Assembly (NCBI RefSeq): GCF_030052815.1
Contig: NC_079507.1
Location: 17,878,141 to 17,942,140, forward strand
Reading direction: 5' to 3'
Length of the DNA stretch: 64,000 bases
DNA from: Hevea brasiliensis
Taxonomy: Eukaryota; Streptophyta; Magnoliopsida; Malpighiales; Euphorbiaceae
The stretch's first letter is position 1, and each line of letters starts with the position of its first letter. The notes beneath the pieces were generated by a model that was given only the letters and a program-made list of their open reading frames with translations, had not been told where the DNA came from and searched no databases. This document shows positions 1,327-55,868 of the stretch, one piece after another. Made by a program: the position numbers and the translations under genes.

Positions 1327-1368
1327 GCGACAGCAAAATAAGCTATCGCTAAGTATAAAAATACTCAG
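1327..1368 (-). other. LTR double hairpin, element L
   Basis: In sense, hairpin 1 has stem CTGAGTAT/ATACTTAG with a TTTT loop. Hairpin 2 follows at once with stem GCGATAGC/GCTGTCGC. The pairing is seen directly; the function is unknown. Confidence 0.6.
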
Positions 1369-3238
1369 TGGTGCACAATAAAAATTTAAAATACGATACA
1401 TAATCATTCATTACCAAAACACAATTTAAATATTTCTCATTCACATTTCACAAATATCAAAGCTCATAATAACGCCATTTAGTCAAATAATTCATTAAAC
1501 ACAGTGTTGCCAAAATCATACACAACTTAAGCCATAACACAAAATTTTCGATCAATGCCGTGTTGTACACCATGACAAAGCAATCTACAACCTCATTAAT
1601 CGAAATCAATGAGGGAGGTGGCTAGCTAGCTAATGAGTACTCATCCGATCTCAACCTCAACTAGCAAGCCAGAGAGGGAGGAAAATAAACGATCTCAACC
1701 CCATAAATGGAGGAGGAATAATGTGATACTGTCATGCTAAGTGTGAACATAAAATCAATTCAAAAAAATTTATTCAAATAATTTATGAAAAATCTAATCA
1801 ATTTCCAAAGTCATATTTACGATTATAAAATGGCAACACAGTACATAATTAATCACAGAAGTCAAATTTTTGCGAATAAAATATTTGAACAAGAATTATT
1901 GTGCACAGACCTGACGTGAGTCGCCTTTAGGCCTTGACTTAGTCTCTTCGAGTTTCCAAGTCTTTTTTAGCTGAAACACACAATTTCATAGTGTTTCAGT
2001 ATCATAACTTAGCATAAATCCAAAAATAAATTTCACTTCATTTTTACCTAGCTTTAATGTGCTAATTTCGACGTTCTCGAAGTTTTTGTGTTTCGGGTTA
2101 CTATTCACTATACTATTCAAGTCAAATTGTTGACTTTTTAAGGCTTAATAGGTATGGGAACTCCAACTTCACCCACATACCACATTTTGGTCATTAAATT
2201 TGTTGGTTTTGGTCATTTTCTCAAAGTTTAAATCCTTTTGGCCAAATTGTCAAATTTTCAGTTTTGGTGCTCCAAGTTGCACTGTTCCATTGGTAATTTT
2301 ACTGTTGGAATTTGACAAAACTTCCTTCATAGAAAATGTTCCTTAATGTCGTAAGTTTATTCTCATTTTTAGATCACCCCAATTGGAGTTTTTTAGCTCA
2401 AGTTATGGCCATTTGAACCAGGGCTGCCGGATGGAAAACAACCCTGATTTTCTGGGTAATTTTGGTGCTGGCAGATTTGGGTCACCAAATTGGGGTGGCC
2501 AAATGGCTTGGTTGCTGGTAGAATTTGGACTTGTGTTCCTCATGAAAGCTTTAGGTCTATATCCCATCTAACCACTGGTAAAAGTTCAGGTCAATTTGAC
2601 CTGACTAGCTCGAGTTATGACCAAATGAACAAACACTGTTCATTTGGTCAGTTTGTACAGTGGCAGACTGCTCTTATTCAACATTGGTCAATTTGTTCAC
2701 TAGGTTTTGGTCAGTTTTTGAGCATGGTTCCTAAATGAAAATTGTGTCATTTTATGTCTATTTTCATCCCCAATTGATACCATATCAATTGGACTTGTAA
2801 AATTTTAGTTTTGGTCCTTCAAAGTTGACTTGGTCATGCTGCCAGTAGCATGACCATATACCCTCTGAATTTGGCTTCAACTCCAACAATTCAAACACAA
2901 CTCATTTGGTCACAATTGACCATTTTTCACTTCACAATAGGTCAAACATGCCATTTACTAATTTCTTACATTTTTGGTTTACAAACCCTAAGTCCCAAAA
3001 CCCTAATTCACATAATTGTTGCAATTAACTAAATTCAAAGCTTTCAACCATAATCAATCAACTAATGGAGGTCCATAAACTCATTTAAATCCATCAAACC
3101 ATACAAGATCATGCTCCCCTTTAATAGGCCAAAATTTCAGTAATGGTCCTCACCTCATATTTTTATTTCATTTCATTAATTTCTAAGCTCATTTCAACAA
3201 CTAATAATGGATTTAATTAACTAATTGATAGTTAAGAG

Positions 3239-3244
3239 ACTAAC
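3239..3244 (-). promoter_or_regulatory. Putative 5' splice donor, element L LTR
   Basis: Sense AAAG|GTTAGT, at the same place as GTAAGT donors in the LTRs of B, C and G. With the acceptor at 513-512 it would remove about 2.7 kb including the PBS. Confidence 0.35.
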
Positions 3245-4135
3245 CTTTGCTTAGATCCTCAAATCTCAATCTTTTGTTCTGCTTTCTTATTTCAATCTTC
3301 TTCTTAAGTTGAGATTACAAGCTCTAGTAAGGTTTTTATGGGATTTATGAAGGGTAAGTGAACAAATTAAAGCTTGAGTGCAAGCTTTAATGGAAGATTA
3401 AAAATGGTGAAATAAAGGAGAGAGTGAGGCGGCAAGGGAGATGGAAGATGACCAAATAATGTTTTTTCTTTCTTTTCTTTTCTTTATTTATTTTAGGTTA
3501 TGGAAGACCACAAAATCTAAATTAATAATTAAATTAATTAATTTATTTATGGCATCATGGATGAGGTCATGCATGATGTCATCACCTTTTTACTTTTTCA
3601 TTTTTCTCTTTTTTTTTCTATTTTTCTGTTAGTTCTTTAATTTAATTCTCGATTCCGAAATTTTCTTTTTTCTGATTTTATTTGACAGTTAGGTCAGGAG
3701 TCAACTCTCGGGGTCAATTGACCAAATTGCCCCTCGTCGGTTCATCCTGGTTTGCAAATAATTCCATATTTCTTCCGGCTCCCTAACCTAATTATTTGAC
3801 TGGCTTAACAGTTCTTTTTCGTGATTTTCTCTTTTCCACTGTGTTCATAAGGGTCCTAAGGACCGCAGCGTCATATTTTACGGTTCGAAATTTGAGTTTA
3901 AATCGACTTCGTAGTCGTTCCCGAGGAGGTCACCCATCGCTGTTACTCTCTGCTCGTTTAACTTCTTATGTTCTGTTTTTCTTATTTATACTTAACTAAT
4001 TCAACATTACTAATTATTTGTGTTTATGGTTTCTCTAGTTGTCTTAATTGTGGTTCTAATCCCCTTAATTGTCCGGACCGACACCGGTCACCGGAACAAT
4101 GAAATATACCAGGCTATACAAATAGGGGTGTTACA

Positions 4136-4467
4136 TATACCCTTGTATATTAGATTTTGATGTAATTCTATAATTATATGTATGTAATTTCATTCGAGCA
4201 GTGGTATCAACTCTTTTGTAATATATTTTTGGAATGTAACCAAATACAAATTATGGTAATATTATCTTGAGATTTTATGAACTTATAAAGTTTTGTGTTA
4301 GTAAATTTTTTATACTCCCATGAATTTAAATATTAAATTTGTTACCTTAATGAGATGATTCAATGTTTGATTTATTTTAAACTGGGTATTGGGTTTCTTG
4401 TGTTGATTTGTAATATGAAATTGAATAATGGAGTTGTGGTTTAGAAAATAAATTTGGAGTGTTTTTC
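4136..4467 (+). repeat. 5' LTR fragment of element B, middle part
   Basis: Matches the 3' LTR of B at about 21412-21742 (shared TTGATGTAATTCT and CGAGCAGT stretches). It is what remains between the insertions of L (ending 4135) and A (starting 4468). The LTR continues at 15087. This shows that both L and A are younger than B. Confidence 0.85.
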
Positions 4468-5091
4468 TGTGACACCCCTTACCCGTCTACAGTATATCCG
4501 AGTAAGCTATGTCACACGGTGTACCGGAACACTCCATTTTATCTTAATTATTTTTATTCTTCCTTAATTAATTTTTATCATAGTTTTGAATATAACTTGT
4601 GAAATATAATTCATTTAAGTCATTTATTGAAATTATAATTTATTTGAGATTCTGAAAATTTTATAGAAAATCTGGCAGAGTACCGACTAAAAATGGAGAA
4701 AACAGTTCTTCGGAACCTGTTAAAAACACTTCCAATAATCATTTCCAACAATCCCAACTTCATTTCATCAACAAAATCTCAATATGTTTTTCAACAACAT
4801 TTCCATTTCTCAATCATTCATCTCATATGATAATCATGTAAAAGTCATAAATAAATATTCACTTTTTCATTCACAAACACAATATCTACTATTTACATTA
4901 ATACCAAAATACATTACATAAGTTTCAATTACATATGAGAAAATAAAAGTTATTACAAAATATCAAAATAAAACCTAGTGTCCTACCAATGCACTGATGA
5001 CGGTGAGGTGACATGGGCACTATGTAGGGCTGTAGGAGGTCTCACCCAGTCTGTGGTCTACTGGGCTCTCGATCAGTATCTCCAGAACCTA

Positions 5092-5129
5092 CGCGTGGCA
5101 AAAGCAACGCGCTAAGCAATAATGCTTAG
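5092..5129 (-). other. LTR double hairpin, element A 3' LTR
   Basis: Hairpin 1 stem CTAAGCA/TGCTTAG with a 4-base loop, then hairpin 2 with arms CGCGTGGC/GCAACGCG on the + strand. The stem sequences differ from family 1 but pair at the same place. Confidence 0.6.
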
Positions 5130-7080
5130 TGGTGCCAATAATAAAATACAAAGAAATAACAAAAAAATAAATATGCAGTGAATGTATCGATGTCTTATTG
5201 CAAATAAATTTTCAATGAGTATTTGTAGTCTTACTTATTGTATACTTGTTATATTCATTATTTTGTTAAATTTATCCACTTTCATTTTTTTTTTTTTGGT
5301 TTTTCAAGTAACCCATACTGGACGGCTAGACTGGATAAATGGGTAAACTGGCACTGGGTATCAAGTACCTCGGGCCATCACACCATCGGTCACATATGTA
5401 TCTCCTGGTGTGGAACAGAACAGCTAATAAGCTGTAATAACATCAGGCACTAGGCCAAATTTCAATACAAGGTCAGAATGGCTAAAAGCCATGAAATCAC
5501 AGAATGGCATAATGCCATGTGCAGTACTGCTAACTGAGCCCTATTGGCATGCCAAACTATCCAAACCAATCTAGTTAGGTATACTAGGGCATTTGTTACT
5601 TTGGAATCTTTCAATTTTTGAATTTCAAGTTTTGGTGTTACTATTCCCTTCATTAGTCAACAAAAATATTGACTTTTGTATAGAAAATAGGTACGTTGAT
5701 TTTAACACTCCCAACATACCACATTTTGCATTCAAAATTTGTTGGCATTGATTACCAATACCATTTCTAAGCTTAAAATTAATGGAGCAGAATTTTTAGT
5801 TTTTATACCCTATCTTTACTGTTCCATTAGTTACTGTTGCAGTGGGAATTTGAGAAAATGATAAACATGAAAGTTGTTCCTTATTTTGTCTAGTTGAATT
5901 TATTTTTTAGAATTACACCATTTGGAGTTTTGTAGCTCAAGTTATGGTTCAAAAACCACAACTGGCCGAATTGAAAAATTTCAGAACTGACCATATCTAC
6001 AGTGCAGTAAACAGTAACTTCGACTCTCTTGTTGAATAGGTTCTGGTCATAATTTGGGGTAGGTTCCTTCATGAATGTTGTTGGTCTATATCTCAGCTTG
6101 TTTCTAGTGAAATTTCAGGTCAATTGGGCCATTCTACTCTGAGTTATTGCTAAATGAACAATCACTGTTCATTTGGTCATTCTGCAGAAACTGGTTGCAG
6201 GACACCCGGATTGAGGCAAGTTTTTGGTCCACTTGGTTTGGTCTTTTTGGCATGGTTTCTTCACCAAAGTTGTGCCATTATGTGTCTAGTTTCATGTCCA
6301 ACTGGCCAAATACCAATTGAACCTACACAGCCCAAGTTGTGGCTGTCCAAACAGGCTGGACTTACATCCAAACCTGCTGCTCTCACTAGGCAGCATACCA
6401 AATCAGTTTTCTAATGCTATAATTCACTCCAAGTTATGGTCAATTTCCCTCAAATGGTCACTAATTGACCCTTAGAATGTTCATTCAACATTACATAAAC
6501 AAAGTCCAAATTTCTCTTCAAAACCCTAATTCCCCATTCCAATTCGCACAATATGCATTAGTTAAACACACTAATTCATTATCAATATGTATATACACTT
6601 CAAACACCATCTCTAATCCATTCTAAGCCCATCAAAACAATCAAATCCCCACTCCCAATAGGCTGATGAAATTTACCTCTACCCTAGCATGCATAATTCT
6701 CTTCAAATCCCACAATTTCTTAGCTTAATTTAGTGCCTTAACATGATTATCCAAAGAAAAAAAAGAAAGATGGCACTAACCTTGTTGGAGCTAACTCCCA
6801 AGCTTGCAAAAACTTTCTTTTCCTTCTTCTTTTTACTGGTTAGAGAGAGTTTAAGGTACAAGGAAGAATTTTTGTGAAGTGATTAAGTGAGTTTATAGTG
6901 AAACTTAGTGGGGTGTGAAGCTTGATGAAGTTTTAGTGGAGGTTTGGCTTAAGGGCAAGAATTCGGCTGGTTTGAGGGAGAAGAAGGCAGATGGTATTTT
7001 GATTTTTTTTTGGTCTCAATTGTCTCTTTTTATTAGTTAATTAAGTGGTTGTTTAAATGTAATTGGTGGGAATTTTTAAA

Positions 7081-7099
7081 TGACATCATAATGATGTCA
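7081..7099. promoter_or_regulatory. U3 palindrome, element A 3' LTR
   Basis: TGACATCATAATGATGTCA, a perfect 9-bp inverted repeat around one A. Near-copies lie at 14524-14542 and 47175-47193, with family 1 variants at 28438-28457 and 40166-40185. It resembles a paired bZIP-type half site; binding is inferred. Confidence 0.45.
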
Positions 7100-7647
7100 T
7101 AATTTGCAATATATTTCATTTTCTTTCCTTTTCTTTTCTTTTTTACTAACTTCAAATTGATTTTTCATCAACATTAATTCATATTTTATGTCATATAATT
7201 TATGTACTTAATTGGACAAGTTGGTCAAAAATCACCTCTGAAGGCGAAATGACCAAAATGCCCTCCATTTGGCTTAACGGGTCAAAATTGTCTGTATCGA
7301 TTGAAAAATTTTTCTAAATATTTTCTTGGCATTCTAATATCATAGGAACCTCAATGAACCTTCTCTGGAGTCCCAATAATTATTTTATAATGTTTCTCCC
7401 GGGTCTAGGGCTCCTAGTTGCGAGAACCGCAACTTCTCACTAGGTTACCCATCTCTAGGGCACCGGCTCATTTAACTTGGTTGTATTTTATTTCTAAAAT
7501 TTTTCCTAAATTTTTCTTATTAATATTTGAGTTAATTATGGTTCCTCACTTTAGTTTAAATATTTTTCCGAATGTTCTAGCTGTCGATCAAACCTTTGGT
7601 CACCAGGAGCGATAGAATGTCTGAGTTGCTCTGAGGAGGGTGTTACA

Positions 7648-7662
7648 ACACTTCCCCTCTAA
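7648..7662 (-). other. Polypurine tract, element A
   Basis: Sense AGAGGGGAAGTGT lies directly against the 3' LTR start and is the expected plus-strand primer. The preceding CGAAATTT-type sequence is shared with elements B and E. Confidence 0.75.
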
Positions 7663-7709: not shown

Positions 7710-8570
7710 CTATTGCCTCATCGTCTCTTCACTTTCCCAACTTGCCTCTTCGGTGTTGTGGTGCCTCCAAAGCACTTTCACCAGTGGAATCTGCTTATTC
7801 CTCAACTCTTTCACTTCCCGAGCCAGGATCCGTATGGGTTCTTCTTCATATATCAAATCCGGTTGTACTTCAATTTCTTCTATGGAGATGACATGTGAAG
7901 GATTTGAGCGATATCTTCTTAGCATAGATACGTGGAACACATTGTGGATCTTGTCCAGCTCTGGTGGTAAAGCTAGCCTATAGGCCACTGGACCCACACG
8001 TTCAATGATTTCATATGGGCCAGTAAACCTTGGGTCTCGATCAGATATGATGGAAAGTGGAATTCCATGCAGTCTAACTCTCTCACTGATATACAATTCT
8101 GCTAACTTCTCCAGTGAGTAGTCAGTCCTAACTGGCAGAAAGTGTGCTGACTTTGTCAATCTATCCACTATCACCCATACTGCATCATGTTTCTTCTGGG
8201 TGAGAGGTAAACCACTTACAAAATCCATAGTGACCCGATCCCATTTCCATTCAGGTATGCGTATAGGCTGTAGCAAACCTGATGGAACTTGATGTTCTGC
8301 CTTGACTTGCTGACATGTCAAGCATTTAGTCACATAGTCAGCTATGTTCTTCTTCATACCAGGCCACTAATACTGAAGTTTCAGATCATGATACATTTTT
8401 GTACTTCCTGGGTGCATAACATAAACACTGGCATGTGCCTCTTTCAGAATATTGGCTTTTAATTCCCCATTATCTGGTACACATACTCTTCCTTTGTAGT
8501 ATAGACACCCATCTGCTTTCACTTCATAGTCAGTTGCCTTCCCTTCTAGGATTTTGCTCATAATAGCCAT
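7710..8570 (-). pseudogene. int: Integrase and chromodomain remnant, element A
   Basis: Integrase inserts the cDNA into the host chromosome. The N-terminal zinc-binding part (HPGSTKMYHDLK, then CLTCQQVK) and the first two catalytic acids (TMDF and SDRD) are visible. A TAG at a Trp position (LQY|WPGM) splits the frame near 8364-8366. After SDRDPRFT the frame jumps directly to GPYEIIERVGPVAYRL, so about 167 residues are missing, including the catalytic Glu (DGQ-E in E and C) and the following IN segment. The C-terminal chromodomain (KELRNKQIPLVKVLW) remains. The frame after the deletion is open. Strand transfer activity must be lost. Confidence 0.9.
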
Positions 8571-9137
8571 TAACTTTTCATCTGCCTTTTGCCCATCTAA
8601 AATCTGCTGTAGCAGGTTTGGCCTTACTTACAACTCAGCCAAAATAGCTCCATCTCGAACCAAAGATAGACGGGCATTCAATGATCTCAAAGCTGTGATG
8701 GATTTTCTGTTCAAAGCATCAGCAACTACATTTGCCTTCCCAGGATGGTAGTCAATTACACAATCATAGTCCTTCAGGAACTCAATCCATCATCTCTGTC
8801 TAAGGTTGAGCTCCTTCTGGGTTGGCAAGTATTTCAGGCTTTTGTGGTCCGTGTAAATGTAGCACTTTTCACCATATAAGTAATGCCTCCATATCTTCAA
8901 TGCGAAGATAATTGCTGCAAGCTCTAGATCATGGGTAGGGTAATTCTGTTCATGTGGCCTTAACTGCCTGGAAGCATAAGCGATCACCTTCCCCTCTTAC
9001 ATCAATACACACCCTAACCCATTATGAGAGGCATCTCTGTAGACCACAAAGTCCTTTCCCGACACTGGCTGTGTTAACACCGGTGCCTTTGTCAACATAG
9101 CCTTTAACTTCTCAAAACTAGTCTGACACTTGTCATT
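8571..9137 (-). pseudogene. RNase H remnant, element A
   Basis: RNase H degrades the RNA strand during reverse transcription. The best preserved block is 8790-8987, with [23 protein letters not shown] and [10 protein letters not shown], the Asp-bearing motifs of the Ty3/gypsy domain. It follows RT after TAG at 9135-9137 (a Trp site by comparison with E), and has further stops before AYASRQ (TAA at a Gln site) and after LNLRQR. The stretch 8571-8789 links to integrase and is conserved in element C (near 59630-59830), but is frame-broken here. Confidence 0.85.
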
Positions 9138-9914
9138 CTAGTCAAATATGACATTCTTATGTAACAACTTGGTCATTGGAGCAGCTATTAAGGAAAATCC
9201 CTTCACAAATCTTCTGTAATATCCAACTAGCCCCAAAAAGCTTCTGACCTCATTTGTATTTCTGGGAGGCTTCCATTCCATCACTGCTTCTATTTTCTTG
9301 GGATCCACCCTAATCCCATCAGCTGACACTATGTGTCCAAGGAATGCAATCTCATTCAACCAGAAGTCACACTTTGACAACTTAGCATACAACTTCTTTT
9401 CTCTCAGGGTTTGCAGAACAATCCTCAAATGTTCATCATGTTCTTCCCTGGTCTTGGAATACACCAAAATATCATCAATAAAGACCACTACGAACCGATC
9501 TAAGTATGGATGGAAGATACGGTTCATAAGGTCCATGAATGCTGCTGGTGCATTCGTTAGGCCAAAGAGCATCACCAGAAACTCATAATGCCCATACCGG
9601 GTCCTGAATGCAGTCTTTGGCACATCTACATCCTTCACCCTCAACTGATGATACCCTGATCTGAGATCAATCTTAGAAAATACTCCTGCTCCCTTCAACT
9701 GATCAAACAGATCATCAATTCTAGGCAACGGATATTTGTTCTTCACAGTCACTTTATTCAACTGTCGGTAATCGATGCATATCCTCAAAGTCCCATCCTT
9801 CTTTTTCACAAACAGCACTAGAGCTCCCCATGGTGGCACACTGGGGCGTATGAACCCCTTATCAAGCAAATCTTGCAACTGAGTTTTCAACTCCCTCAAT
9901 TCAATGGGTGCCAT
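9138..9914 (-). pseudogene. rt: Reverse transcriptase domain, element A
   Basis: 258 open codons covering the whole RT core: [53 protein letters not shown] and the catalytic FIDDILVYS. The palm motif FIDD is intact. The frame is closed by TAG after VIFD and is separated upstream from the protease part by a TAG at a Gln site (about 9955-9957). Copies in C, D, E and F agree closely. It would copy element RNA into DNA inside the particle. Confidence 0.93.
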
Positions 9915-9956
9915 CCTATAAGGAGCAATGGAAATGGGTGCTGTACCTGGTAGTGT

Positions 9957-10883
9957 CTAAATAGTAAACTCAACTTCCCTTTCTGGTGGCAAACCAGGCA
10001 ATTCTTCAGGGAATACATCTGGGAAGTCTTTTACTGTGGGTATGTCACACAGATCTGGCTTAGCCTGCCTAGTATCCACCACATGTGCTAGGTAGGCTTC
10101 ACAGCCTTTTCTCATCATTCTTCTTGCAACTGTGGCTGAGATAACATTGGACAGGAAATCTATCTTTTCACCCACAACAGTGATCTCATTACCCTCAGGA
10201 GTTTTCAAAGAAATCTTCTTCAGTTTACAATCAACTGTTGCTTGATGACGTGACAACCAATCCATTCCCAAAATCACCTCAAACTCGTGGAAGGGCAACT
10301 CAATTAGATCTGTCGAGAATTCCTACCCCTGAATCCTTAATGGGCAACCCTTGTACACTTTGTTCACCACTACACTGTGGCCCAACGGATTAGTGACCAG
10401 AATGTCTTGGTCACTCTCCCCTACTAGTATCCCCCTTTCTACGGGTAGGTTAATGCAGATGTATGAATGAGTGGATCCTGGATCCACCAATGCATGCACA
10501 GATGTAGTGTAGAGGGAGAACATACCCCTGATAACGTCTGGGGCATCTTGCTCCTCCTGAGCTCTCATAGCATATGCTCTGGCAGGTGGTCTGCCCTCAG
10601 GCCTCTCTGCTGGCTCAGATGCAGGCCTCTGTGATGGTCCCACTGCCTCAGATTTGCCAGATTTCCTTCCCCTTTGTGGTGCAGGAGCAGGTCTGTCTGT
10701 TTGTGTTGGAGCAGCTGTAGTAGTTCTGCGTGGACAATTCCTTAGCTGATGCTCTGTCGACCCACACCTTAAGCAGGCACCAGTCACTCTCCAACACTCC
10801 CCCTTATGCCACTTCAGGCAATGTGGACATGCAGAAGATGCTGGGGCTGGTCCCCTGAACCCCATCCCTGGAGAGCTGCCCAC
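9957..10883 (-). pseudogene. Zinc knuckles and aspartic protease, element A
   Basis: From 10883 down, a nucleocapsid region with two Cys/His knuckles: C-x2-C-x3-H-x3-C (residues 19-30) and C-x2-C-x4-H-x4-C (residues 37-50 of the open segment). A Pro/Arg/Ala-rich linker follows, then the protease active site LVDPGSTHSYI. A stop at about 10320 (a Tyr site by comparison with C) splits the frame. It continues 10298-9957 with the conserved VILGMDWLSRH and FPDVFPEELPGLPP. The protease would cut the gag-pol polyprotein. DPGS in place of DTG/DSG is common to the copies here. Confidence 0.88.
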
Positions 10884-10905
10884 TGATGGTGTGGACTGAC
10901 CTCTC

Positions 10906-11792
10906 CTAGGGGTAACCGTGGCTCTGGGCCCCGAGACCGACTCGACCTTGTGATTGACCTAAACTCTGTGCAGGTGGACCCTTGAACTTCTTCCCAGATG
11001 CAGGAGATGAACTAGACTGACCTGGGCCCCTCTTCTGCTGTCTCTCTCTTCTGGTCTGCTCACTTATTCTTACTTTTTCAACTTTTATTGCAGCTTCCAC
11101 TAACTTGGTGAAGTCGGTGATTCCCAAGGCAGTGATCATGATCTTTATGTTGTCATTTAATCCCTCTTCAAATCTCTTACACCTTTCAGCCTCATTAGGG
11201 ACTATCTCCCTTCCGTAGCGGCTCAATCTGACGAATTCCTTTTCATACTCGGCCACTGTTAGCTGTCTCTGCCTCAAGTTAATGAACTCTCTTCTTCTCT
11301 CTTCCAGGTATACACTACCCACGTATTTCTTCTTGAATTCAGAGAGGAAGAAGTCCCAAGTTATTACTTCTGGCTGTACTTCACTGGACACCGTATCCCA
11401 CCATTCATATGCATCATCTTGCAACAGAGATACAACAGCTTCTAGATTTTGCTCTGGAGTGCAGTGGAGTTGTTTTAAAACCCTGCCTGTTCTGTTCAAC
11501 CAATTTTCGGCTGCAACAGAATCATCTTCTCTCTTGCCAAAGAAGTCCACTGCTCCAAATTTTCTTAGTCTTTCCAGGTGTGATTTCTGCTGTGGAGGTG
11601 GTGGTGGTGGTGGTGCTGGCATTACCCCAGCCATTTGTTTGAAGAATTCGGCCATTTGCTGGAACATGGCCTGTGGAGGCTGAAAGCGCACTCGCTTGAG
11701 CTGGAGTAGGTTCTCCTACCCAGCCTCACCGCTGCAGGTGGAGCATGACTCTCCACTTCTTCCTCAACTGCTCTCTAAGATGTAGGGTCCAT
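10906..11792 (-). pseudogene. gag: gag, element A
   Basis: The gag start is taken as ATG 11792-11790 (MDPTS), the same start as in element C, but a TAG follows after five codons. From 11691 a 261-codon open segment begins with AMFQQMAEFFKQMAG and a proline run. It then has LERLRKFGAVDFFGK, YEWWDTVSSEVQP, FFLSEFKKKYVGSVY and ALGITDFTKLVEAA, the gag capsid region. It ends at a TAG near 10908, where a small frameshift separates it from the zinc-knuckle segment. Gag packages the RNA. Confidence 0.88.
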
Positions 11793-11795
11793 ATC

Positions 11796-11902: not shown

Positions 11903-11914
11903 GCTCTGATACCA
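11903..11914 (-). other. Primer-binding site, element A
   Basis: TGGTATCAGAGC in sense, complementary to initiator tRNA-Met, 5 bases from the 5' LTR. Confidence 0.92.
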
Positions 11915-12539
11915 CTAAATGTGACACCCCTTACCCATCTACAGTATATCCGAGTAAGCTATGTCACACGGTATACCGAAACACTCCATTTTATCTTAAT
12001 TATTTTTATTCTTCCTTAATTAATTTTTATCATAGTTTTGAATATAACTTGTGAAATATAATTCATTTAAGTCATTTATTGAAATTATAATTTATTTGAG
12101 GTTCCGAAAATTTTATAGAAAATCTGGCAGAGTACCGGCTAAAAATGGAGAAAACAGTTCTTCGGAACCTGTTAAAAACACTTCCAATAATCATTTCCAA
12201 CAATCCCAACTTCATTTCATCAACAAAATCTCAATATGTTTTTCAACAACATTTCCATTTCTCAATCATTCATCTCATATGATAATCATGTAAAAGTCAT
12301 AAATAAATATTCACTTTTTCATTCACAAACACAATATCTACTATTTACATTAATACTAAAATACATTACATAAGTCTCAATTACATATGAGAAAATAAAA
12401 GTTATTACAAAATATCAAAATAAAACCTAGTGTCCTACCAATGCACTGATGACGGTGAGGTGACACGGATACTATGCAAAGCTGCAGGAGGTCTCACCCA
12501 CCGTGGTCTCATGGGATCTCACAAGATCTCCAGAACCTA

Positions 12540-12577
12540 CGCATGGCAAAAGCAACGCGCTAAGCAGTAATGCTTAG
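12540..12577 (-). other. LTR double hairpin, element A 5' LTR
   Basis: Hairpin 1 stem CTAAGCA/TGCTTAG (7 bp, loop GTAA on the + strand) and hairpin 2 with arms CGCATGGC/GCAACGCG. One arm base differs from the 3' LTR. Confidence 0.6.
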
Positions 12578-14217
12578 TGGTGCCAATAATAAAATACAAA
12601 GAAATAACAAAAAAATAAATGTGCAGTGAATGTATCGATGTCTTATTGCAAATAAATTTTCAATGAGTATTTGTAATCTTACTTATTGTGTACTTGTTAT
12701 ATTCATTATTTCGTTAAATTTATCCACTTTCATTTTTTTTTGGTTGCCCAAGTAACCTATACTGGATGACTGGACTGGATAAATGGGTAAACTGGCACTG
12801 GGTATCAAGCACCTCGGGCCATCACACCATCGGTCACATATGTATCTCCCGGTGTGCAACAGAACAGCTAATAAACTGTAATAACATCAGGCACTAGGCC
12901 AAATTTCAATACAAGGTCAGAATGGCTAAAAGCCATGAAATCACAGAATGGCATAATGCCATGTGCAGTACTACTAACTGAACCCTATTGGCATGCCAAA
13001 CTATCCAAACCAATCTTGTTAGGTATACTAGGGCATTTGTTACTTTGGAATCTTTCAATTTTTGAATTTCAAGTTTTGGTGTTACTATTCCCTTCATTAG
13101 TCAACAAAAATATTGACTTTTGTATAGAAAATAGGTACATTGGTTTTAACACTCCCAACATACCACATTTTGCATTCAAAATTTGTTGGCATTGATTACC
13201 AATACCATTTCTAAGCTTAAAATTAATGGAGCAAAATTTTCAGTTTTTATACCCTATATTTACTGTTCCATTAGTTACTGTTGTAGTGGGAATTTGAGAA
13301 AATGATAAACATAAAAGTTGTTCCTTATTTTGTCTAGTTGAATTTCTTTTTTTGAATCACTCCATTTGGAGTTTTGTAGCTCAAGTTATGGTTCAAAAAC
13401 CACAACTGGCCGGATTGAAAAATTTCAGAACTGACCATATCTACACTGTAGTAAATAGTAATTTCCACTCTCTTGTTGAATAGGTTCTGGTCATAATTTT
13501 GGGTAGGTTCCTTCATTAAAGTTGTTGGTCTATATCTCAGCTTGTGTTGGTAAAATTTCAGGTCAATTGGGCCATTCTACACTGAGTTATGGCTAAATGA
13601 ATAATCACTGTTCATTTGGTCATTCTGCAGAAACTGGTTGCAGGACACCCGGATTGAGGCAAGTTTTTGGTCCACTTGGTTTGGTCTTTTGGGTATGGTT
13701 TCTTCACCAAAGTTGTGCCATTATGTGTCTAGTTTCATGTCCAATTGGCCAAATACCAATTGAACCTACACAGCCCAAGTTGTGGCTGTCCAAACAGGCT
13801 GGACTTACATCCAAACCTGCTGCTCTCACTAGGCAGCATACCAAATCAGTTTTCTAATGCTATAATTCACTCCAAGTTATGGTCAATTTCCCTCAAATGG
13901 TCACTAATTGACCCTTAGAATTTTCATTCAACATTACATAAACAAAGTCCAAATTTCTCTTCAAAACCCTAATTCCCCATTCCAATTCACACAATATGCA
14001 TTAGTTAAACACACTAATTCATTATCAATATGTATATACACTTCAAACACCATCTCTAATCCATTCTAAGCCCATTAAAAAAATCAAATCCCCACTTCCA
14101 ATAGGCTGCCGAAATTTACCTCTACCCTAGCATGCATAATTCCCTTCAAATCCCACAATTTCTTAGCTTAACTTTGTGCCTTAACATGATTATCCAAAGA
14201 AAAAAAAGAAAGATGGC

Positions 14218-14223
14218 ACCAAC
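14218..14223 (-). promoter_or_regulatory. Putative 5' splice donor, element A
   Basis: Sense CAAG|GTTGGT here and CAAG|GTTAGT in the 3' LTR, at the place where element C has CAAG|GTAAGT. The implied intron to 11796 is about 2.43 kb. Confidence 0.3.
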
Positions 14224-32862: not shown

Positions 32863-32870
32863 TGTTTTAG

Positions 32871-44714: not shown

Positions 44715-47700
44715 TGTGACACCCCTTACCCGTCTACAGTGTAGCCGAGCAAGATATGCCACGCAGTGTACCGGAACACCCTATTTTAATTCAATCATTT
44801 TTATTCTTCCTAATTTATTTATTTTTTTTCATAGTTATGAAGTCCAATTTGTGAAATGTAATTCATTTCAGTCATTTATTGAAATCATAAATTTATTTGA
44901 GGTTCCGCAAATTTTATAGAAAATCCGGCAGAGTACCGGCTAAAAATGGAGAAAACAGTTCTTCGGAACCTGTGAAAAACACTTCCAATATTTTTAATCA
45001 ATCCCAAACTCCATTTCATCAACAAAATCTCAATATGTTTTTCAACAACATTTCCATTTCTCAATCATTCATCTCATATGATAATCATGTAAAAGTCATA
45101 AATAAATATTCACTTTTTCATTCATAAACACAATTTTCACTATTTACGTTAATACCAAAACATTACATAAGTTTCAATTACATATGAGAAAATAAAAGTT
45201 AATTACAAAATACCCAAAATGAAACCTAGTGTCCTACCAATGCACTGACGTCGGTGAGGTGACACGGACACTATGCAGAGCTGCAGATGGTCTCACCCAG
45301 TCTGTGGTCTATTGGGCTCTCGGTCGGTCTCTCCAGAACCTACGCGTGGCAAAAAGCAACGTGCTAAGAAATAATGCTTAGTGGTGTCAATAATAAAATA
45401 AAAAGAAATAATAGAAAATAAATATGCAGTGCATGTTTTGATGTCTTATGCAGACAATTTTTCGATCAGTATTGGTAATCTTATTTATTTTGTATTTGTT
45501 ATATTCATAATTTCATTAAATTTATCCACTTCCATTTTTAGTTGCCCAAGTAACCTATACTGGACGACTGGACTGGATAAATGGGTAAACTGGCACTGGG
45601 TATCAAGTACCTCGGGCCGTCACACCATCGGTCACATATGTATCTCCCAGTGTGCAACAGAACAGCTAATGAGTTGTAATAAATATTAGGCACAAGGCCA
45701 AGTATCAACACAATGTCAGAATGGCTAAAAGCCATAAAATCACAGAATGGCATAATGCCATGTGCAGTACTGTTCAGAGCATGCCAACCTATCCAAACCA
45801 ATCTTGCTAGGTGTACTAGGGCATGTTACACTTTTAAACTTTACAATTCTTGAAATTTAAGTTTAGGTGTTACTATTCATTTTATTAGTCAACTAAAATG
45901 TTGACTTTTGCATAGACAATAGGTACATTGGTTCTAATACTCCCAACATACCACATTTTGCATTCTAAAATTGTTAGTATTGGTTGCCAATACCATTCTA
46001 AGCTTAATGTTAATTGTTCAAAATTTTCAGATTTCAAGCTTTGTATTTACTGTTCTATTAGTCATTTTTGCAGTGGGAATTTGGCAAAATGATCAACATG
46101 AAAGTTGTTCCTTTTTTTGTCTAGTTACATTTCCTTTTTTGAATCACTCCATTTGGAATTTTGTAGCTCAAGTTATGGCCCAAAAACCACAACTGGCTGG
46201 ATTGAAATTTTCCAAAATTTCTGGACTGACCAAATCTATAGTACTTGGAACTATGACTGCAACTCACTTTTTGAATATGTTCTGGTTATAATTTGGGTTA
46301 GGTTTCTTCATGAAACTTGTAGATCTATATCTCAAATTTTTGTTGATAAAAGTTCAGGTCAATTGGACCTTTCTACATTGAGTTATGGCCAAATGACCAA
46401 ACACTATTCATTTGGTCATTTTGCCCAGGTAGAATGCAGGTCACCCGGATTAGGGCAAGCTTTTAGTCAACTTGGTTTGGTTTTCTGGACATAGTTTCTT
46501 CACCAAAATTGTGCCATTATGTGTCTAGTTTCATGTCCAATTGGCCTTGCACCAATTGAACCTCTAGAATTCAAGTTATTGCTGCCCAAACCTGCTGGAC
46601 TCATGCCCAGCCCTGCAGGTCACCAAGGGCAGCCACACCAACTTCATTTCCCACTACATAAACCACTTCATTTCTAATTCACACATAACCAAATGGTCAT
46701 TAATTGACCATTAAAACTTACTTTCATCATTACATGATCAACATCTCAATTTTGGGTCCAAACCCTAGCTCTACCATTTCAATTTTTCAAACACATACAA
46801 TCAATGGATCAATTCTAACTCCTAATGATGCATATACAAGTTTAAAGAATTAATTGACACTAACCTTTGTTGGAGAGTTTCCCTAGCTTAGAAAACTTCT
46901 TGATTTTTCTTTCTTTTTGTTGCCCAAAGCTTCCTCAAGGTGCTAGGTTAATTATTTGTGAAGAAGGCTAGGGTTTTAGAGTGAGATTTGGTGAGGTTGG
47001 GAGCTTGGGTGAGCTTTAATAGAGTTTTCCTTCCTCTCTCTTTCTCTCCACGTTTTTGGCTGCCCCAAAGGTTGAAGAAGCAACTGATTTTTCTTTTTTT
47101 TTTTCTGCCCATTAAGTCATTTTAAATAAGTTAATGCCATGTGTCAAAGTTTGATTGGGTGGGAGGGTTTTTAATGACATCATAATGATGTCATAATTCT
47201 AATTCTTCAATTTTCCTTCCTTTTCTTGTCTACTAAATTTCAATTTAATTTTTAGCTATATTTATTCACATTTTATGTCATAATAATTATTTAATTAACT
47301 GGACAAGTCGGCCAAAAATCATCTTTGAAGACAAAATGACCAAAATGCCCTCTGTTTGGCTTAACAAACTAAAATTGTCTGTACCGATTTAAAAATTTTT
47401 CTAAACCTTTTCTTGGCATTCTAATGCCATAGAAACCTCAATGACCCTTCTCTGGAGTCTCAAAAATTATTTTATGAATTTTGCCTCGGGTCTAGGGCTC
47501 CTAGTTGTGAGAACCGCAACTTCCCACTGGTTTACCCATCGCTAGGGCACCGGCTCATTTAACTTGGTTGTATTTTATTTCTAAAATTTTTCCTAAATTT
47601 TTCTTATTAATATTTGAGTTAATTATGGTTCCTCACTTTAGTTTAAATATTTTTCTTGACGTTCTAGCTATCCAGACCAACATCGGTCACCGGAATAGTA

Positions 47701-50457: not shown

Positions 50458-53316
50458 TGTCACACCATAACCCTCCGTAAGGCATAACATGATCCCGTAG
50501 TATACCTAATGAATTACCAAACTTCGTCTACTAATAACCCATTAGATATACTACAAGGGATTTTAAACCTTTTCTTATTTCTTTTTACAGTGGTGAGCAC
50601 TTTTGACAGGCGTAAAAAAATTTCTTTTACTAAAGTGAAACCAAATAACAAATCTGGAGTATCAATAATTTCTGTAAAATTTTTGGCAAAGTGCAGTTTG
50701 TATTTTGAATAAAATAGTTATTCAAAAACCTGTAAAAAAAACACTTCCAATATATTTGTTCAATCCAAAACTCCAATAATAGTTCAATACAAATAAATTT
50801 CTCAATATTTGTCAAACTCAATTCAATATCAATTTTTAGTATTTCCAAAGATAGACTACAAAATGATTGAGTAGTTCAAAAGCTGAGATAAGAAATAAAT
50901 ATATTACAACTTTAGTTTACAACTACTCTAGACCAAGTATAATATACATATAGTTCACATACATTATAACAAAAATTATAAAAATATGGTATACTCAATA
51001 TACCCGGCAGAATCCCAAAATATAGCACAAGCAGCCTACTTTGCTGCTCTGTCTGTCTGTCTACCTGTGATAGCAATGAAAAAGATATCACTGAGCCAAT
51101 GTCTCAGTGGTGCACAACATTAAGAAAATGAAATTTAAAACCATAAACCATAAATCATATAAACTGTAGATACTTAAAATCATAGTTAAATTCAAAAGAT
51201 AGAGAATGTCATAAAGAATTAAACTCCATTTCACAATGTCTCAATGAATATCAATAAATCACACACATAGCTTAATCATCATTCCAAAGTCCAATTTGTC
51301 CCAAAACCAATGGCTGACGAGGAATAACATACCTAGCTAGCAATTATATGAGTACTAATTCTATTCGTCCTCAACTGATACACACCTCAACACTTTAGTC
51401 AGAAAGGGAATTCAAAGCCAATTCGTCCCACTAGATAAGCTAGCGAGGAATTCAATCAAATATACATGATAGCTATGGTTTCAAACCACTTGCAATATTT
51501 TTCAAGCAATAAGTATCCATCAAATATCATTCAAACAAATTTTCCACAATTGAAGCAATAACATACAAATTGTCATAATTTATTTCAATTGAAAATTCAA
51601 AAGAAATAACTGTTGTGCACAAACCTTTGAAGAGTAGCCTCTTGGCCTTGACTCAGTGTTTCCTTCCCCTTCCCTGAGTCTTTGCTAACTGAAACATACA
51701 ATTTAAAGTGTTTTAGTACTCAGTTAAATTGTCTCTAACAATAAGGTTCAATAATTAATTTATTTAATATTATTGCTTTCATTAGTCAACCTATAATATT
51801 GACTTTTGATGCACTCTAGGGGAATAAATTTTAAAATTACCAATATGTCACATTTTATAGCCCTTTAGTGTTGGTATATGTTACCAATTTCATTTTCAAG
51901 TGTATTACAATTTATTGTAATTTATCGGATTTCGGTATGCTGTTTTGACCTAGCCGGATGACCTAGTTTCCTTAGTTTCTGGTTCTGGTCAAAATTACAA
52001 ACTTGTAGGTGTATGTCTTAATTAACTTTTGCCACAAATTTTAGGTTATTTGGAGTTTACTATACCAAGTTATGGTCATTTTACTATTGCTAGACAGATT
52101 ATACTAAAATGGCAAACTTAGGTCATTTTTAGGTCATTTTCGATTCTTGTAGTTTTTATGCCCGAACTTGTGCAAGTATTTTGACTTGCTTATCGTCATT
52201 TCTAGGTTTTGTGGTCTCTATAAAAGATGTAGCCCTATGTCTAAGCTTTCCAACCATATAAACTTTAGGTCATTTGGACCTGTTTTGAGTGAGTTATGGC
52301 CAAAATACTGACTGCTATTCAAATGGTCAATTTTCAGGTTTGCAAAGTCACTAATACGGATTTGGTCAATTTTCATGTTACTTTCTGGACAGAATTTAGG
52401 TAGGCTTCCAACATAAAAGTTGGCACATTTTGTGCCTAGTTTCACACACTTAGGGTTATAGGCTCATTTGCATACTGCCCTTTACATGTCTCTCAAATGC
52501 CAATCCAAATACACATTAACCTTGTTATAAGTCCACTTCTCTACCAAATTCTGAATTGGTACTAACCATAATCACTCAACACAACACATTCAGGTCAACT
52601 TGGGCAGAATATAACAACTCACAATACACCAAATGCAATCCTAATTAACAAAGTCCAAACCCAACAATATATACACATAAACACTCCTAATTATTACAAT
52701 TTCCACTACTATATCATTTACATATGCTGCCACTTTTAGTACCATAATTCAACAAACTTTTTATGAATTTAAACACTTCTAATCTTCACCATGAGGCTGG
52801 CCAAGTAACACATATACATCAAGCTTCCATTTTAACTTTTCAAACTTAAAATTCAAACTATATACATGGTAAATCATTCCTATACATTTAAACACTTAAT
52901 TCAACATCTCAAAACACCAATTTACATGAAGAAATAATTCATTAACCTTGATATTCCATGGCTGCCAAAAATAATACCTTCCAATAACTCATTAAAACCT
53001 CAAAGTTTCTTCATAAATCTACTCACCACAACACCCACACAAACTTTAATGAAGCAAAAATGGAAAATAAGCACTTACTTAATTTGAAGCTTGTTAAAAA
53101 CTCATCAAAACCTTTCTTTCTTGCTCCCTAAATGCTGTTCAAGGTGTGGTGATCAACTTTAATGAAGAGAACTAGTGGAAACAATGGCTAAATGAGGAGT
53201 GCATGGAGGATTGTGTGAGGTTTGGCTATGGAGGATTTTCTTTTGGGAGGTTTTTAGCTGGTTGTTGAGTGAGGTTAAAGATGACAGATTTTCTATCCCA
53301 AATGCTATAAATAGGT
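50458..53316 (-). repeat. LTR I (family 3), interrupted by element C
   Basis: Starts TGTCACACC against D's RNase H (left flank TAGAG) and is collinear with G. The double hairpin (51067-51107) keeps pairing through compensating changes. It contains about 750 bp with modules (about 51765-52560) that G lacks. The far (U3) end lies beyond C, outside the window, so I cannot say whether I is a solo LTR or an element end. Confidence 0.85.
51067..51107 (-). other. LTR double hairpin, LTR I
   Basis: Arms on the + strand GTGATAGC and GATATCAC. Compared with G, both arms changed so that the outer six pairs persist (GTGATA/TATCAC). Hairpin 1 CTGAG/CTCAG is kept. Confidence 0.55.
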
Positions 53317-54184
53317 TGTAACACCCTCCCTATAGCAACTCCGTCCATTCTACTGTTCCGGTGACTAGTGTCGGTCCGGACAATTAGAACGTCTGAAAAA
53401 AAAAATTAAACTAAAGTGAGGAACTATAATTAACTCAAATATTAACAAGAAAAATTTAGGAAAAATTTTACAAATAAAATACAACTAAGTTAAATGAGTT
53501 GTTGCCCAAGCGATGGGTAAGCTAGTGGGAAGTTGCGGTTCTTGCAACTAGGAGCCCTAGACCCAAGAAAAAATTCATAAAATAATTTTTGGGACTCTAG
53601 AGAAGGGTCATTGAGGTTCCTATGGTATTAGAATGCCAAGAAAATGTTTATAAAAATTTTTCAATTGGTACAGACAATTTTAGTTTGTTAAGCAAAACGG
53701 AGGGCATTTTGGTCATTTCGCCTTCAAAGGTGATTTTTGCCCAACTAGTCCAGTTAAGTAAATAATTATTATGACATAAAATATGAATAAATATTGTTAA
53801 AAATTAAATTGAAAATGAGTAGAGAAGAAAAGAATAGGAAATGATATAAAAGGCCCATTTATGACATTATTATGATATCATTAAGCAAATCCCACCAATC
53901 ACATTTAACTAACACTTGAATTAACTAATAAAAAGGGATAAGGATACAACAAAATGACAAAAAAAAAGGCAATAGCCATCTCCTTCAACAAGCCAGCCGA
54001 AACCCACCTCCCATACCCAAACCTCCATTAAAACACCCCAAAGCTTCATTACCTCACCAAATTTCACTTGAAACCCTAACCTAGCTTCACAAAAAAATTA
54101 ACCTAGCAACTTGAATATCCTCTAGGTAGCCAAAAGAGGAAGAAAGAAAGAAGTTTATGAAGGGAGAAATTCTGCCCCAACAAG

Positions 54185-54190
54185 GTAAGT
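54185..54190 (+). promoter_or_regulatory. Putative 5' splice donor, element C
   Basis: CAACAAG|GTAAGT. The intron to 56604 would be 2,420 nt and joins the leader to the gag ATG. Confidence 0.45.
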
Positions 54191-55830
54191 GACCAAACTC
54201 TTGGTCTTTTTAGTTTAAGTCATGTTTAATGGCATCATATGTGTAGGAAATGTAATAAAATGAAACAAACAAGTGTGTGTGTACACCCTACAAGTTTAGG
54301 CAGTTAGGGTTAGTTAGGGTTGGTGATTTTGCTTGATAGCAAAGTGTTGATGAGCAGCCCTTAGTGCTAAATGCATGATTGAACTTAGTTGTGTAGGTGA
54401 AATGCAAAGATTAGGCATGTTTGAACATGGAAAACATATGGACACTTAATAACATTAGGGTTTGCTCATGTGATGGTTCATTAACCTTTTAATGGTCAAT
54501 TAGTGACCATTTGAATGTGTATGATGAGGAAATGAAGTGAGTTGAGGCTTGGCATTTGTGTATGGGTGAGCTGCCTTAGCTGACCTGCAGGACTGAGCAT
54601 GAATCCAATAGGTTTGGGCAGTTATAAATGGAGTTGTAGAGGTTCAATTGGTGCAAGGCCAATTGGACATGAAACTAGACACATAATGGCATAACTTTGG
54701 TGAAGAAACCCTACCCACAAAACCAAACAAAGTTGACCTAAAAATTACCCTAATCGGGGTGACTTGCATCCTACCTAGGCAAAATGACCAAATAAACAAT
54801 GTTTTTTCATTTGGTCATAACTCAGTGCAGAAAGGTCAAATTGACCTGAAATTTTACCAACTGAAAGCTTAGATATATACCTATAACTTTTATGAAGAAT
54901 AAAAATCCAAATTCTGACCATAACCTAGTCAAATTGCCAACCAAACTTAGGTTATCAAATCTGGCAGAACCATTTTTGCATAGAATTTTGGATTTTGTCT
55001 AATCCGGCCAGTTATGGTATTTAGGCCATAACTTGAGCTACAAAACTCCAAATCGAGTGATTCAAAATAGGAAATGTAACTAGACAAAATAAGGAATAAC
55101 TTTCATGCAGACAATTTTGCCAAATTCCTATTGTACAAATGACCAATTGAACAGCAAATATGAGGCTTGAAATCTGAAAATTTTGAATAACTAACACTAA
55201 GCATAGAAATGGTATTGGCAACCAATACCAACAATTTTAGAATGCAAAATGTGGTATGTTGGGAGTATTAGAACCAATGTACCTATTATCTATGCAAAAG
55301 TCAATATTTTAGTTGACTAATGAAATGAATAGTAACACCTAAAATTAAATTTCAAGAATTGTACAATTTAAAAGTGTAACATGCCCTAGTACACCTAGCA
55401 AGATTGGTTTGAATAGGTTGGTATGCCAATAGGGTTCAGTTAGCATTACTGCACATGGCATTATGCCATTATGTGATTTCATGGCTTTTAGCCATTCTGA
55501 CATTGTGATGATGCCTTGTGCCTAATATTTATTACAACTTATTAGCTGTTCTGTTGCACACTGGGAGATACATATGTGACCAATGGTGTGATGGCCCGAG
55601 GTACTTGATACCCAGAGCCAGTTTACCCGTTTATCCAGTCCAGTCATCCAGTATAGGTTACTTGGGCAACCAAAAAATGAAAGTGAATAAATTTAATGAA
55701 ATTATGAATATAATGAGTACAAAATAAATAAGATTATCAATAATGATCGAAAAATTATCTGCATAAGACATCAGAACATACACTGCATATTTATTTTCTG
55801 TTATTTCTTTTTATTCTATTATTGGTACCA

Positions 55831-55868
55831 CTAAGCATTATTGCTTAGGGCGTTGCTTTTGCCACGCG
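55831..55868 (+). other. LTR double hairpin, element C
   Basis: Stem CTAAGCA/TGCTTAG (loop TTAT), then GGCGTTGC with GCCACGC in sense. Confidence 0.6.

What the first reader, a model, noticed from the sequence alone, without database searches (positions are those of the whole stretch)
1327..55868. Covarying double hairpin at the same place in every LTR type
Ten LTR copies have two adjacent hairpins, 0.4-0.7 kb (longer in B) before the LTR 3' end: 1327-1368, 5092-5129, 12540-12577, 21297-21335, 26019-26058, 37736-37775, 41034-41073, 42398-42438, 45343-45381 and 51067-51107, plus C at 55831-55868. Family 1, B and D use CTGAGT/ACTCAG and GCGATAGC/GCTGTCGC; family 2 uses CTAAGCA/TGCTTAG and a CGCG-type second stem. 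The stems change sequence but still pair: L has CTGAGTAT/ATACTTAG, and I changed both arms to GTGATA/TATCAC. Such covariation points to selection on RNA structure, for example packaging, dimerisation or 3'-end formation. I know of no description of it.
Basis: partly seen in the sequence, partly recalled or inferred. Interest (0 to 1): 0.78.

Follow-up and report, generated by a model that had tools for sequence, protein, structure and literature searches.

The report
Paired hairpin in plant retrotransposon LTRs
Thousands of jumping-gene copies in one large genome, likely a plant's, share two adjacent short hairpins in their long terminal repeats, and the two arms of each hairpin change together between families, so the RNA is predicted to fold there and the fold likely helps the element copy itself.

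Summary
All eleven double hairpins are at the stated places, 433-705 nt before the LTR 3' end in the nine copies where that end was found. The elements are Ty3/gypsy, probably chromoviruses, with 3.2-3.7 kb LTRs. I located 121 copies (30 flank clusters) by flanking sequence and aligned them without using pairing. Pairing and covariation exceed a tree-aware null (0 of 1000 simulations each); a second tool agrees on four of its five measures. Six of 16 pairs covary individually, four of them by transversions. Sense RNA folds better than antisense (33 of 38).

New here: the hairpin is a joint between LTR modules. Three kinds of mosaic LTR switch parentage within about 80 nt of it, one in this window (21297). 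A TGTA-rich stretch typical of plant poly(A) signals follows 80-240 nt downstream. Both fit the 5' end of R. Best reading: a sense-strand R-region double hairpin, like HIV TAR plus poly(A) hairpin in layout only, probably acting in first-strand transfer. A TATA-box test was negative and no transcript ends were available, so R placement and function are inferred.

The parts
1327..1368 (-). double hairpin, type b (CTGAGTAT/ATACTTAG + GCGATAGC/GCTGTCGC)
   Evidence: z -5.44
5092..5129 (-). double hairpin, family 2 (CTAAGCA/TGCTTAG + CGCGU.GC/GC.ACGCG), in the 3' LTR 4468-7648
   Evidence: z -3.98
12540..12577 (-). double hairpin, family 2, in the 5' LTR 11920-15087 of the same element
   Evidence: z -2.88
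21297..21335 (+). double hairpin, type c, in a mosaic LTR (upstream like type b, downstream like type c)
   Evidence: (z -3.48)
26019..26058 (-). double hairpin, type a, in LTR 25314-29014
   Evidence: z -3.95
37736..37775 (-). double hairpin, type a, in LTR 37032-40742
   Evidence: z -3.95
41034..41073 (+). double hairpin, type d
   Evidence: z -5.37
42398..42438 (-). double hairpin, type e; inner pairs of hairpin 1 lost (other copies read CTGAGACATTGTCTCAG)
   Evidence: (z -2.45)
45343..45381 (-). double hairpin, family 2, decayed
   Evidence: z -0.88
51067..51107 (-). double hairpin, type e, decayed
   Evidence: z -0.65
55831..55868 (+). double hairpin, family 2
   Evidence: z -3.66
21238..21366 (+). 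interval that holds the parentage switch of the mosaic LTR (-59 to +69 from the start of hairpin 1)
   Evidence: like L006 (type b) from -684 to +69, like L024 (type c) from -59 to +730
4468..7648 (-). 3' LTR of the family-2 element
   Evidence: 95.8% to 11920-15087; TGTAACACCC...GTGTCACA ends
11920..15087 (-). 5' LTR of the family-2 element
11903..11914 (-). primer binding site TGGTATCAGAGC (initiator tRNA-Met type, recalled)
7710..11715 (-). gag, protease, RT and integrase fragments (weak chromodomain match) that set the sense of the family-2 element
4852..5012 (-). predicted poly(A)-signal region (+80 to +240 after hairpin 2) in the copy at 5092; position taken from the 24-context profile
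   Evidence: inference

Best explanation
In the Ty3/gypsy elements (likely chromoviruses of a plant) of this genome the LTR carries, 0.4-0.7 kb before its 3' end, two adjacent hairpins whose arms change together across LTR families and are therefore predicted to fold in the sense RNA; the pair likely marks the 5' start of the R region and likely helps minus-strand DNA jump from the 5' to the 3' end of the genomic RNA. Shown: position, abundance, covariation in one register, sense-strand preference, and mosaic LTRs whose parentage switches at the hairpins. Inferred: that R begins just before hairpin 1 (so the pair would be cap-proximal at the 5' end and upstream of the poly(A) site at the 3' end), that reverse transcriptase pauses at the pair, and that this favours strand transfer and exchange of U3 against R-U5 between co-packaged RNAs.
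For: Covariation: pairing-blind alignment of 121 contexts (30 flank clusters), with changes re-dropped on a tree built from the flanks. Summed paired fraction is 13.74 of 16 against 8.58 +- 0.62, G 930 against 334 +- 78, 0 of 1000 simulations each. Pairs p3, q3, q4, q5, q7 have p <= 0.006 on both measures and p6 p <= 0.03. Registers slid by -1 and +1 (14 pairs each) give summed pairing 5.05 (123 of 1000 simulations reach it) and 2.73 (1000 of 1000). Independent tool on the 30 cluster representatives: 85.3% of cells paired against 71.0 +- 1.4 shuffled, cells changed on both sides 66 against 26.8, pair types 34 against 27.7, covariation score 0.431 against 0.178, 0 of 500 each; slid registers 22-38% paired. 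The same summed result with 38 and 58 contexts. Pair q4 is GC, UG, GU, UA, CG or AU; q5 mainly AU or UA and q7 mainly GC or CG, i.e. transversions. Sense MFE is below antisense in 33 of 38. R placement: three kinds of mosaic switch within -59..+79 of hairpin 1, namely L007, window 21297 with L026, and L230 with L239. Among 37 long contexts, HSPs of 150 nt or more start at -50..0 (48) and end at +50..+100 (22) more often than in any other 50-nt bin between -600 and +250. TGTA peaks +80..+240 after hairpin 2 (30, 52, 42, 36 per 40 nt against 12 or fewer in the other bins; 24 contexts). In the plant element Onsen most LTR recombinants fit the first template switch in R (PMC5668417, passages).
Against: No transcript ends were available. 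A TATA-like motif is not enriched 28-38 nt upstream (18 of 58 contexts, shuffled 17.0 +- 3.2), so the start site is not shown. The hairpin island is shared in 10 of 10 pairs of the five CTGAG-type parents and the LTR 3' end in 9 of 10, with some U3 patches, so homologous recombination of any kind could put joints there; the largest pile of HSP starts is at the shared LTR 3' end (129 at +300..+449). Over all 37 long contexts the island is too drifted to align in most unrelated pairs (aligned in 63 of 476). For L007 the downstream parent is less clear (70-76% to type e, 62-70% to the others). One measure of the second tool, pairs with a change on both sides, is not above shuffles (9 against 8.8). 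Per-pair values shift between runs (p3 pairing p 0.46, 0.001), and q6 is mostly unpaired (38%). Single-pair decay is not clearly RNA-like: 65 steps from a Watson-Crick pair to GU against 47 to AC, some GU favoured by the pattern behind 20 contexts. In longer folds stem 2 is often displaced (mean pair probability 0.43-0.48, below 0.1 in 10 of 24; 0.19 antisense), and stem 1 is as probable antisense (0.83) as sense (0.74). All copies come from one genome.
Confidence: 0.42

Rival explanations
1. A sense-RNA double hairpin that controls 3'-end formation: it holds off poly(A) signal use in the 5' LTR or presents it in the 3' LTR.
For: The TGTA-rich stretch typical of plant far-upstream elements (recalled) begins 80 nt after hairpin 2. 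HIV uses a TAR-adjacent hairpin this way (PMC2645353, abstract).
Against: No AATAAA lies inside the hairpins (0 of 121 contexts), and AATAAA is sparse downstream (10 in 0-280 nt over 24 contexts). It does not predict the mosaic joints at the hairpin.
Confidence: 0.22
2. A Gag- or host-protein-bound packaging or retrosome signal of the genomic RNA.
For: Structure kept while sequence drifts. One large family keeps GNRA loops in hairpin 1 (GCAA 13, GAAA 10, against TCAA, ACAA, AAAA 1 each, with the TTAT family, 9, and two chance picks set aside).
Against: Loops and stem sequences differ widely between families; no protein data. [quoted passage not shown]
Confidence: 0.2
3. A DNA-level dyad: a palindromic binding site or cruciform near the promoter, not an RNA structure.
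For: Sirevirus LTRs carry palindromic repeats near the TATA box (PMC2829016, passages). Hairpin 1 is close to a perfect palindrome on both strands.
Against: Stem 2 has quite different sequences in different families, which a protein reading DNA would not be expected to tolerate. It holds sense-strand GU pairs common in whole families (q4 TG in 29 of 121, q0 GT in 52 of 121), and the sense strand folds better (33 of 38).
Confidence: 0.08
4. Pure descent: a few old families that happen to hold inverted repeats, with no selection now.
For: Much covariation separates deep families; dead copies decay, with GU and AC steps nearly equal.
Against: The tree-aware null keeps descent and is exceeded in 1000 of 1000. 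Different stems occur inside the CTAAG group (GGAGAGTT/AACTTTCC, GTGAAGA/TCTTCAC, TTGC/GTAA).
Confidence: 0.06

Closest known systems
HIV-1 TAR plus poly(A) hairpins in R (PMC2645353, abstract)
   Same: Two adjacent hairpins in the LTR, present at both RNA ends if the R placement is right.
   Different: No AAUAAA in hairpin 2; much shorter stems (TAR size recalled); no Tat counterpart known; R placement here is inferred. No sequence comparison was run.
Sirevirus palindromic repeated motifs and PPT inverted repeat (PMC2829016, passages)
   Same: Conserved inverted repeats in plant LTR elements.
   Different: Ty1/copia; single palindromes repeated upstream of the TATA box, read as DNA elements; no covariation reported in the passages seen.
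HMM models of LTRs (PMC3601003, passages)
   Same: Links leftover conservation in long R regions to stem-loops.
   Different: That study could not model plant Metaviridae LTRs because of their length variation.
First template switch recombinants in Onsen R (PMC5668417, passages)
   Same: LTR joints explained by the first strand transfer in R.
   Different: Another plant element; no hairpin described in the passages seen.
Ty3 genomic RNA structure by SHAPE-MaP (PMC11381356, passages)
   Same: Ty3/gypsy RNA with functional hairpins.
   Different: Yeast; palindromic dimerisation site in the apical part of a hairpin; no tandem R hairpin in the passages seen.

Membership tests
Plant chromovirus, Tekay/Del lineage | gag, protease, RT, integrase | tested here: met
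   Pfam Retrotrans_gag, RVP_2, RVT_1, Integrase_H2C2, SH3_Tf2-1
Plant chromovirus, Tekay/Del lineage | Chromodomain at the integrase C terminus | tested here: inconclusive
   Chromo at E 8e-4, 19.7 bits, below the curated 25.1, in 1 of the 13 fragments scanned
Plant chromovirus, Tekay/Del lineage | Primer binding site TGGTATCAGAGC after the 5' LTR (initiator tRNA-Met; lineage use recalled) | tested here: met
   6 exact sites in the window
Plant chromovirus, Tekay/Del lineage | Place in the lineage by RT/integrase tree | not tested
   no reference set was aligned; long LTRs (3.2-3.7 kb) fit Tekay from recall only
HIV-type TAR/poly(A) tandem hairpin in R | Two adjacent hairpins in sense RNA | tested here: met
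   by folds and covariation, not by probing
HIV-type TAR/poly(A) tandem hairpin in R | First hairpin at +1 of the transcript | tested here: inconclusive
   TATA test negative; mosaic joints agree; no RNA ends
HIV-type TAR/poly(A) tandem hairpin in R | AAUAAA inside the second hairpin | tested here: not met
   0 of 121 contexts have AATAAA anywhere in the double hairpin
Retrozyme hammerhead ribozyme LTRs | Hammerhead motif | tested here: not met
   0 Rfam matches at gathering score in the window
ENE/dENE poly(A)-triplex element (definition recalled) | U-rich internal loop between two stems | tested here: not met
   folds are stem-loops with at most small mismatches
Sirevirus palindromic motifs | Ty1/copia element | tested here: not met
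   Ty3/gypsy-type gag and chromovirus integrase domains

The most novel reading that the evidence does not exclude
A covariation-supported double-hairpin RNA element marks the U3/R border of a whole lineage of plant Ty3/gypsy chromoviruses. It is the joint at which U3 and R-U5 modules are exchanged between families, and it is the first structured R-region element known in plant LTR retrotransposons.
Probability: 0.45. Interest if true: 0.76.

Novelty: new variant of a known kind. Interest (0 to 1): 0.62.

Why it matters
Plant Ty3/gypsy LTRs have resisted alignment, and an earlier LTR modelling study left them out (PMC3601003, passages). A structured landmark kept across families would give a fixed point to place U3, R and U5, to find LTRs by structure when sequence has drifted, and to test how plant retrotransposon RNA ends are handled in reverse transcription. 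It also offers a concrete account of how LTR families mix: U3 promoter modules are swapped at a hairpin joint. This can be tested with RNA end maps and short RNAs, without a mobile element.

Tried and rejected
Splice donor: hairpin 2 is often followed by AGGTA, but type a and type b copies have AGATA, so a conserved donor was rejected.

TATA box at a fixed distance: a first count looked enriched 31-36 nt upstream of hairpin 1, but shuffles that keep dinucleotides removed it.

Wobble asymmetry as proof of RNA: equal in the 58-context set (22 against 20 steps), 65 against 47 in the 121-context set; kept only as weak support.

Kissing-loop dimerisation: loops hold no palindrome shared across families (by eye).

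One search printed those of the 170 with six or more pairs in hairpin 1, which the pattern largely imposes; by eye none of these has hairpin 2 and an AGGTA-like word as here. This says nothing about spread among plants.

Genome-wide 2x2 count of pair p3: G-C 36,443 and G-U 1,850 were answered. A-C was asked seven times and never answered; A-U was asked once. No ratio is drawn.

enod40 structures with transposon pieces (PMC10578108, passages): nothing like this motif in the passages seen.

Rows dropped: of 80 flank-only picks, 14 were dropped by fixed anchor scores (at least four look like real copies: L223, L234, L253, L271) and 3 more for lack of any flank homology. L013 was dropped for a deletion. 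In three rows the 3' anchor was set by hand from flank homology (L022+, L030, window 55831). Two 3' anchors among the 30 representatives look wrong (L252, L291) and were left in; by eye they lower the score.


Full report
WHAT WAS CHECKED. The eleven stated places were read directly and turned into the sense of their elements. Every one holds CACCA, hairpin 1, hairpin 2 with no spacer, then an AGGTA-like word. Nine of eleven fold far better than dinucleotide shuffles; two (45343, 51067) are decayed. Hairpin 2 ends 433-705 nt before the LTR 3' end in the nine copies where that end was found. The elements are Ty3/gypsy with gag, RVP_2, RVT_1, integrase domains, SH3_Tf2-1 and one chromodomain match below its cut-off. 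Their LTRs are 3.2-3.7 kb and begin TGTAACACCC, and the PBS is TGGTATCAGAGC. Chromovirus, and within it Tekay/Del, is the likely lineage from these features, LTR length and recall; no lineage tree was made. The window lies in an unnamed 1.88 Gb genome of 755 contigs; that it is a plant is inferred from the elements.

HOW COMMON. CACCACTGAG N5-10 CTCAGCG occurs 36,443 times with 0 for the reversed pattern. The bare 13-base upstream flank TATTATTGCACCA occurs 21,672 times against 8 reversed; by eye 39 of 40 such places that I fetched carry a CTAAG-type hairpin 1 or a decayed form, L244 being the exception. Two looser flanks are less specific: 12 of 20 places of TTTGTGCACCA and 16 of 20 of ATTTATGCACCA carry hairpin 1 by eye. 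Of 13 PBS-like sites in the window and twenty 10-kb stretches (18 picked blind, two flanking the window), 11 follow a chromovirus-type LTR end and 9 of those have the hairpin 461-732 nt upstream. The two misses are window 32871, where pol matches run to within about 0.4 kb upstream, and L014 1759. The two sites with another kind of LTR end have none.

COVARIATION. Copies were located by flanks, and arms were numbered from three anchors: CACCA, the CTYAG junction, and the AGGTA-like word. Pairing played no part; three anchors were set by hand from flank homology. With 38 flank-found contexts the summed paired fraction was 14.03 over 16 pairs against a tree-aware null of 10.05 +- 0.62 (0 of 2000). 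With 58 contexts it was 13.31 over 15 pairs against 10.36 +- 0.52 (0 of 2000). With 121 contexts in 30 flank clusters it was 13.74 over 16 pairs against 8.58 +- 0.62 (0 of 1000), and the covariation G 930 against 334 +- 78 (0 of 1000). The register slid by -1 gave 5.05 over 14 pairs against 4.49 (123 of 1000 reach it) and by +1 2.73 against 4.09 (1000 of 1000). Their G values are above the null mean too (45 and 15 of 1000), as linked columns would give. Six pairs stand out one by one: p3, p6, q3, q4, q5, q7; single-pair values shift between runs (p3 pairing p 0.46). The outer pairs p1, p2, p4, p5 hardly vary and say nothing; q6 is paired in 38% and q8 in 53%. The null keeps the number of changes per column and drops them at random on a FastTree tree of the flanks, so shared descent is in it. 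Caveats: mosaic LTRs mean that one flank tree is only approximate; 20 of the 121 contexts came from a pattern that fixed the outer part of stem 1 and allowed only G or T at q3. An independent counter on the 30 representatives gave 85.3% paired against 71.0 +- 1.4 and covariation 0.431 against 0.178 (0 of 500 each), with slid registers at 22-38%; its count of pairs with a change on both sides, 9, equals the shuffles (8.8).

WHAT CHANGES. Stem 1 is CTGAGT/ACTCAG, CTGAGTAT/ATACTCAG, CTGAGTAA/TTACTCAG, CTGAGAC/GTCTCAG, CTAAGCA/TGCTTAG or CTAAGCTA/TAGCTTAG. Stem 2 is GCGATAGC/GCTGTCGC, CGCGTTGC/GCCACGCG, GTGATGGA/TCCTCGC, GTGAAGA/TCTTCAC, GGAGAGTT/AACTTTCC, GTGTTGC/GTAACGC and more, some with a mismatch or bulge. 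The exchanges at q3, q4, q5 and q7 include transversions, which deamination does not give; those at p3 and p6 are transitions.

RNA OR DNA. The sense strand folds better than the antisense in 33 of 38 contexts and in 11 of 12 non-redundant ones. Common GU pairs (q4 TG in 29, q0 GT in 52 of 121) would be AC mismatches on the other strand. Against this, single decay steps towards GU and AC are 65 and 47, not a strong skew, as expected if most copies are dead. In folds with 200 nt on each side stem 2 keeps 0.43 mean pair probability in sense and 0.19 antisense, and with the RNA started at CACCA it is below 0.1 in 10 of 24 contexts; stem 1 does not tell the strands apart (0.74 and 0.83).

WHERE IN THE LTR. 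Every LTR base is in full-length RNA, so the motif cannot lie outside it. Two results point to R. First, TGTA is strongly concentrated 80-240 nt after hairpin 2 in 24 non-redundant contexts (30, 52, 42, 36 per 40 nt; 12 or fewer in the other bins), as in plant poly(A) signals (far-upstream UGUA, recalled). Second, LTR parentage switches at the hairpin. L007 is type b upstream (75-77% identity) and nearest type e downstream (70-76%, others 62-70%). Window 21297 is type b upstream (79-82%) and type c downstream (86-87%), with L026 sharing its upstream and the first 119 nt of c. The shuffled baseline is 57%. L230 and L239 are type c upstream (93 and 90%) and type a downstream (82%). Switch intervals are -10..+79, -59..+69 and -10..+40. 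Among 37 long contexts, alignments of 150 nt or more begin at -50..0 (48) and end at +50..+100 (22) more often than in any other bin between -600 and +250; a larger pile of starts lies at the shared LTR 3' end (129 at +300..+449), and pairs are not independent. In the plant element Onsen most LTR recombinants fit the first template switch in R (PMC5668417). The weak point is that the hairpin is an island shared by all five CTGAG-type parents (10 of 10 pairs), so any homologous exchange could land there. The TATA test was negative.

MECHANISM. I commit to an R-region sense-RNA double hairpin at or near the RNA 5' end, repeated upstream of the poly(A) site, that favours first-strand transfer. 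Shown: structure by covariation, strand preference, joint position. Inferred: the start site, pausing, transfer. Rivals are 3'-end control and protein recognition; the GNRA loops kept in one large family (23 of 26 of its 18-nt hairpins among the flank-only picks; GNRA class recalled) would suit the latter.

LITERATURE. Eight answered full-text searches of open-licence papers listed no title or abstract start on a tandem hairpin in plant chromovirus LTRs. I read passages of PMC3601003, PMC11656987, PMC10578108, PMC6317226, PMC2829016, PMC5838962, PMC2832683, PMC11381356 and PMC5668417, and the abstract and outline of PMC2645353. Subscription papers are not covered.

Noticed in passing
window 2581-2654 (sense = minus); degenerate at 6110, 13553, 39200, 46349, 52260: The U3 part of these LTRs holds a second pair of inverted repeats, GACCAAATGAACAnnnnnTGTTCATTTGGTC then AGGTCAAnTTGACCT (MFE -31.0 in the best copy), in a stretch shared by six places of the window (D18).
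   Followed up: partly
window 21297 LTR; L007; L230; L239; L026: Mosaic LTRs that combine the U3 of one family with the R-U5 of another, joined at the double hairpin.
   Followed up: yes
window 60714-61938 and 62783-64000: A 94.6% identical direct repeat 2.07 kb apart at the right edge; its start does not look like these LTRs.
   Followed up: no
window 32486-32882: A chromovirus-type LTR 3' end with PBS at 32871 and pol matches ending about 0.4 kb upstream of it, hence probably an LTR cut short and without hairpin.
   Followed up: partly
LTR contexts L203-L222, L029-L032: Downstream of the hairpin the words AGGTAYTGGAGA, GTCACCTC and TTTTGGTAGGGC recur in several CTAAG-type families.
   Followed up: no
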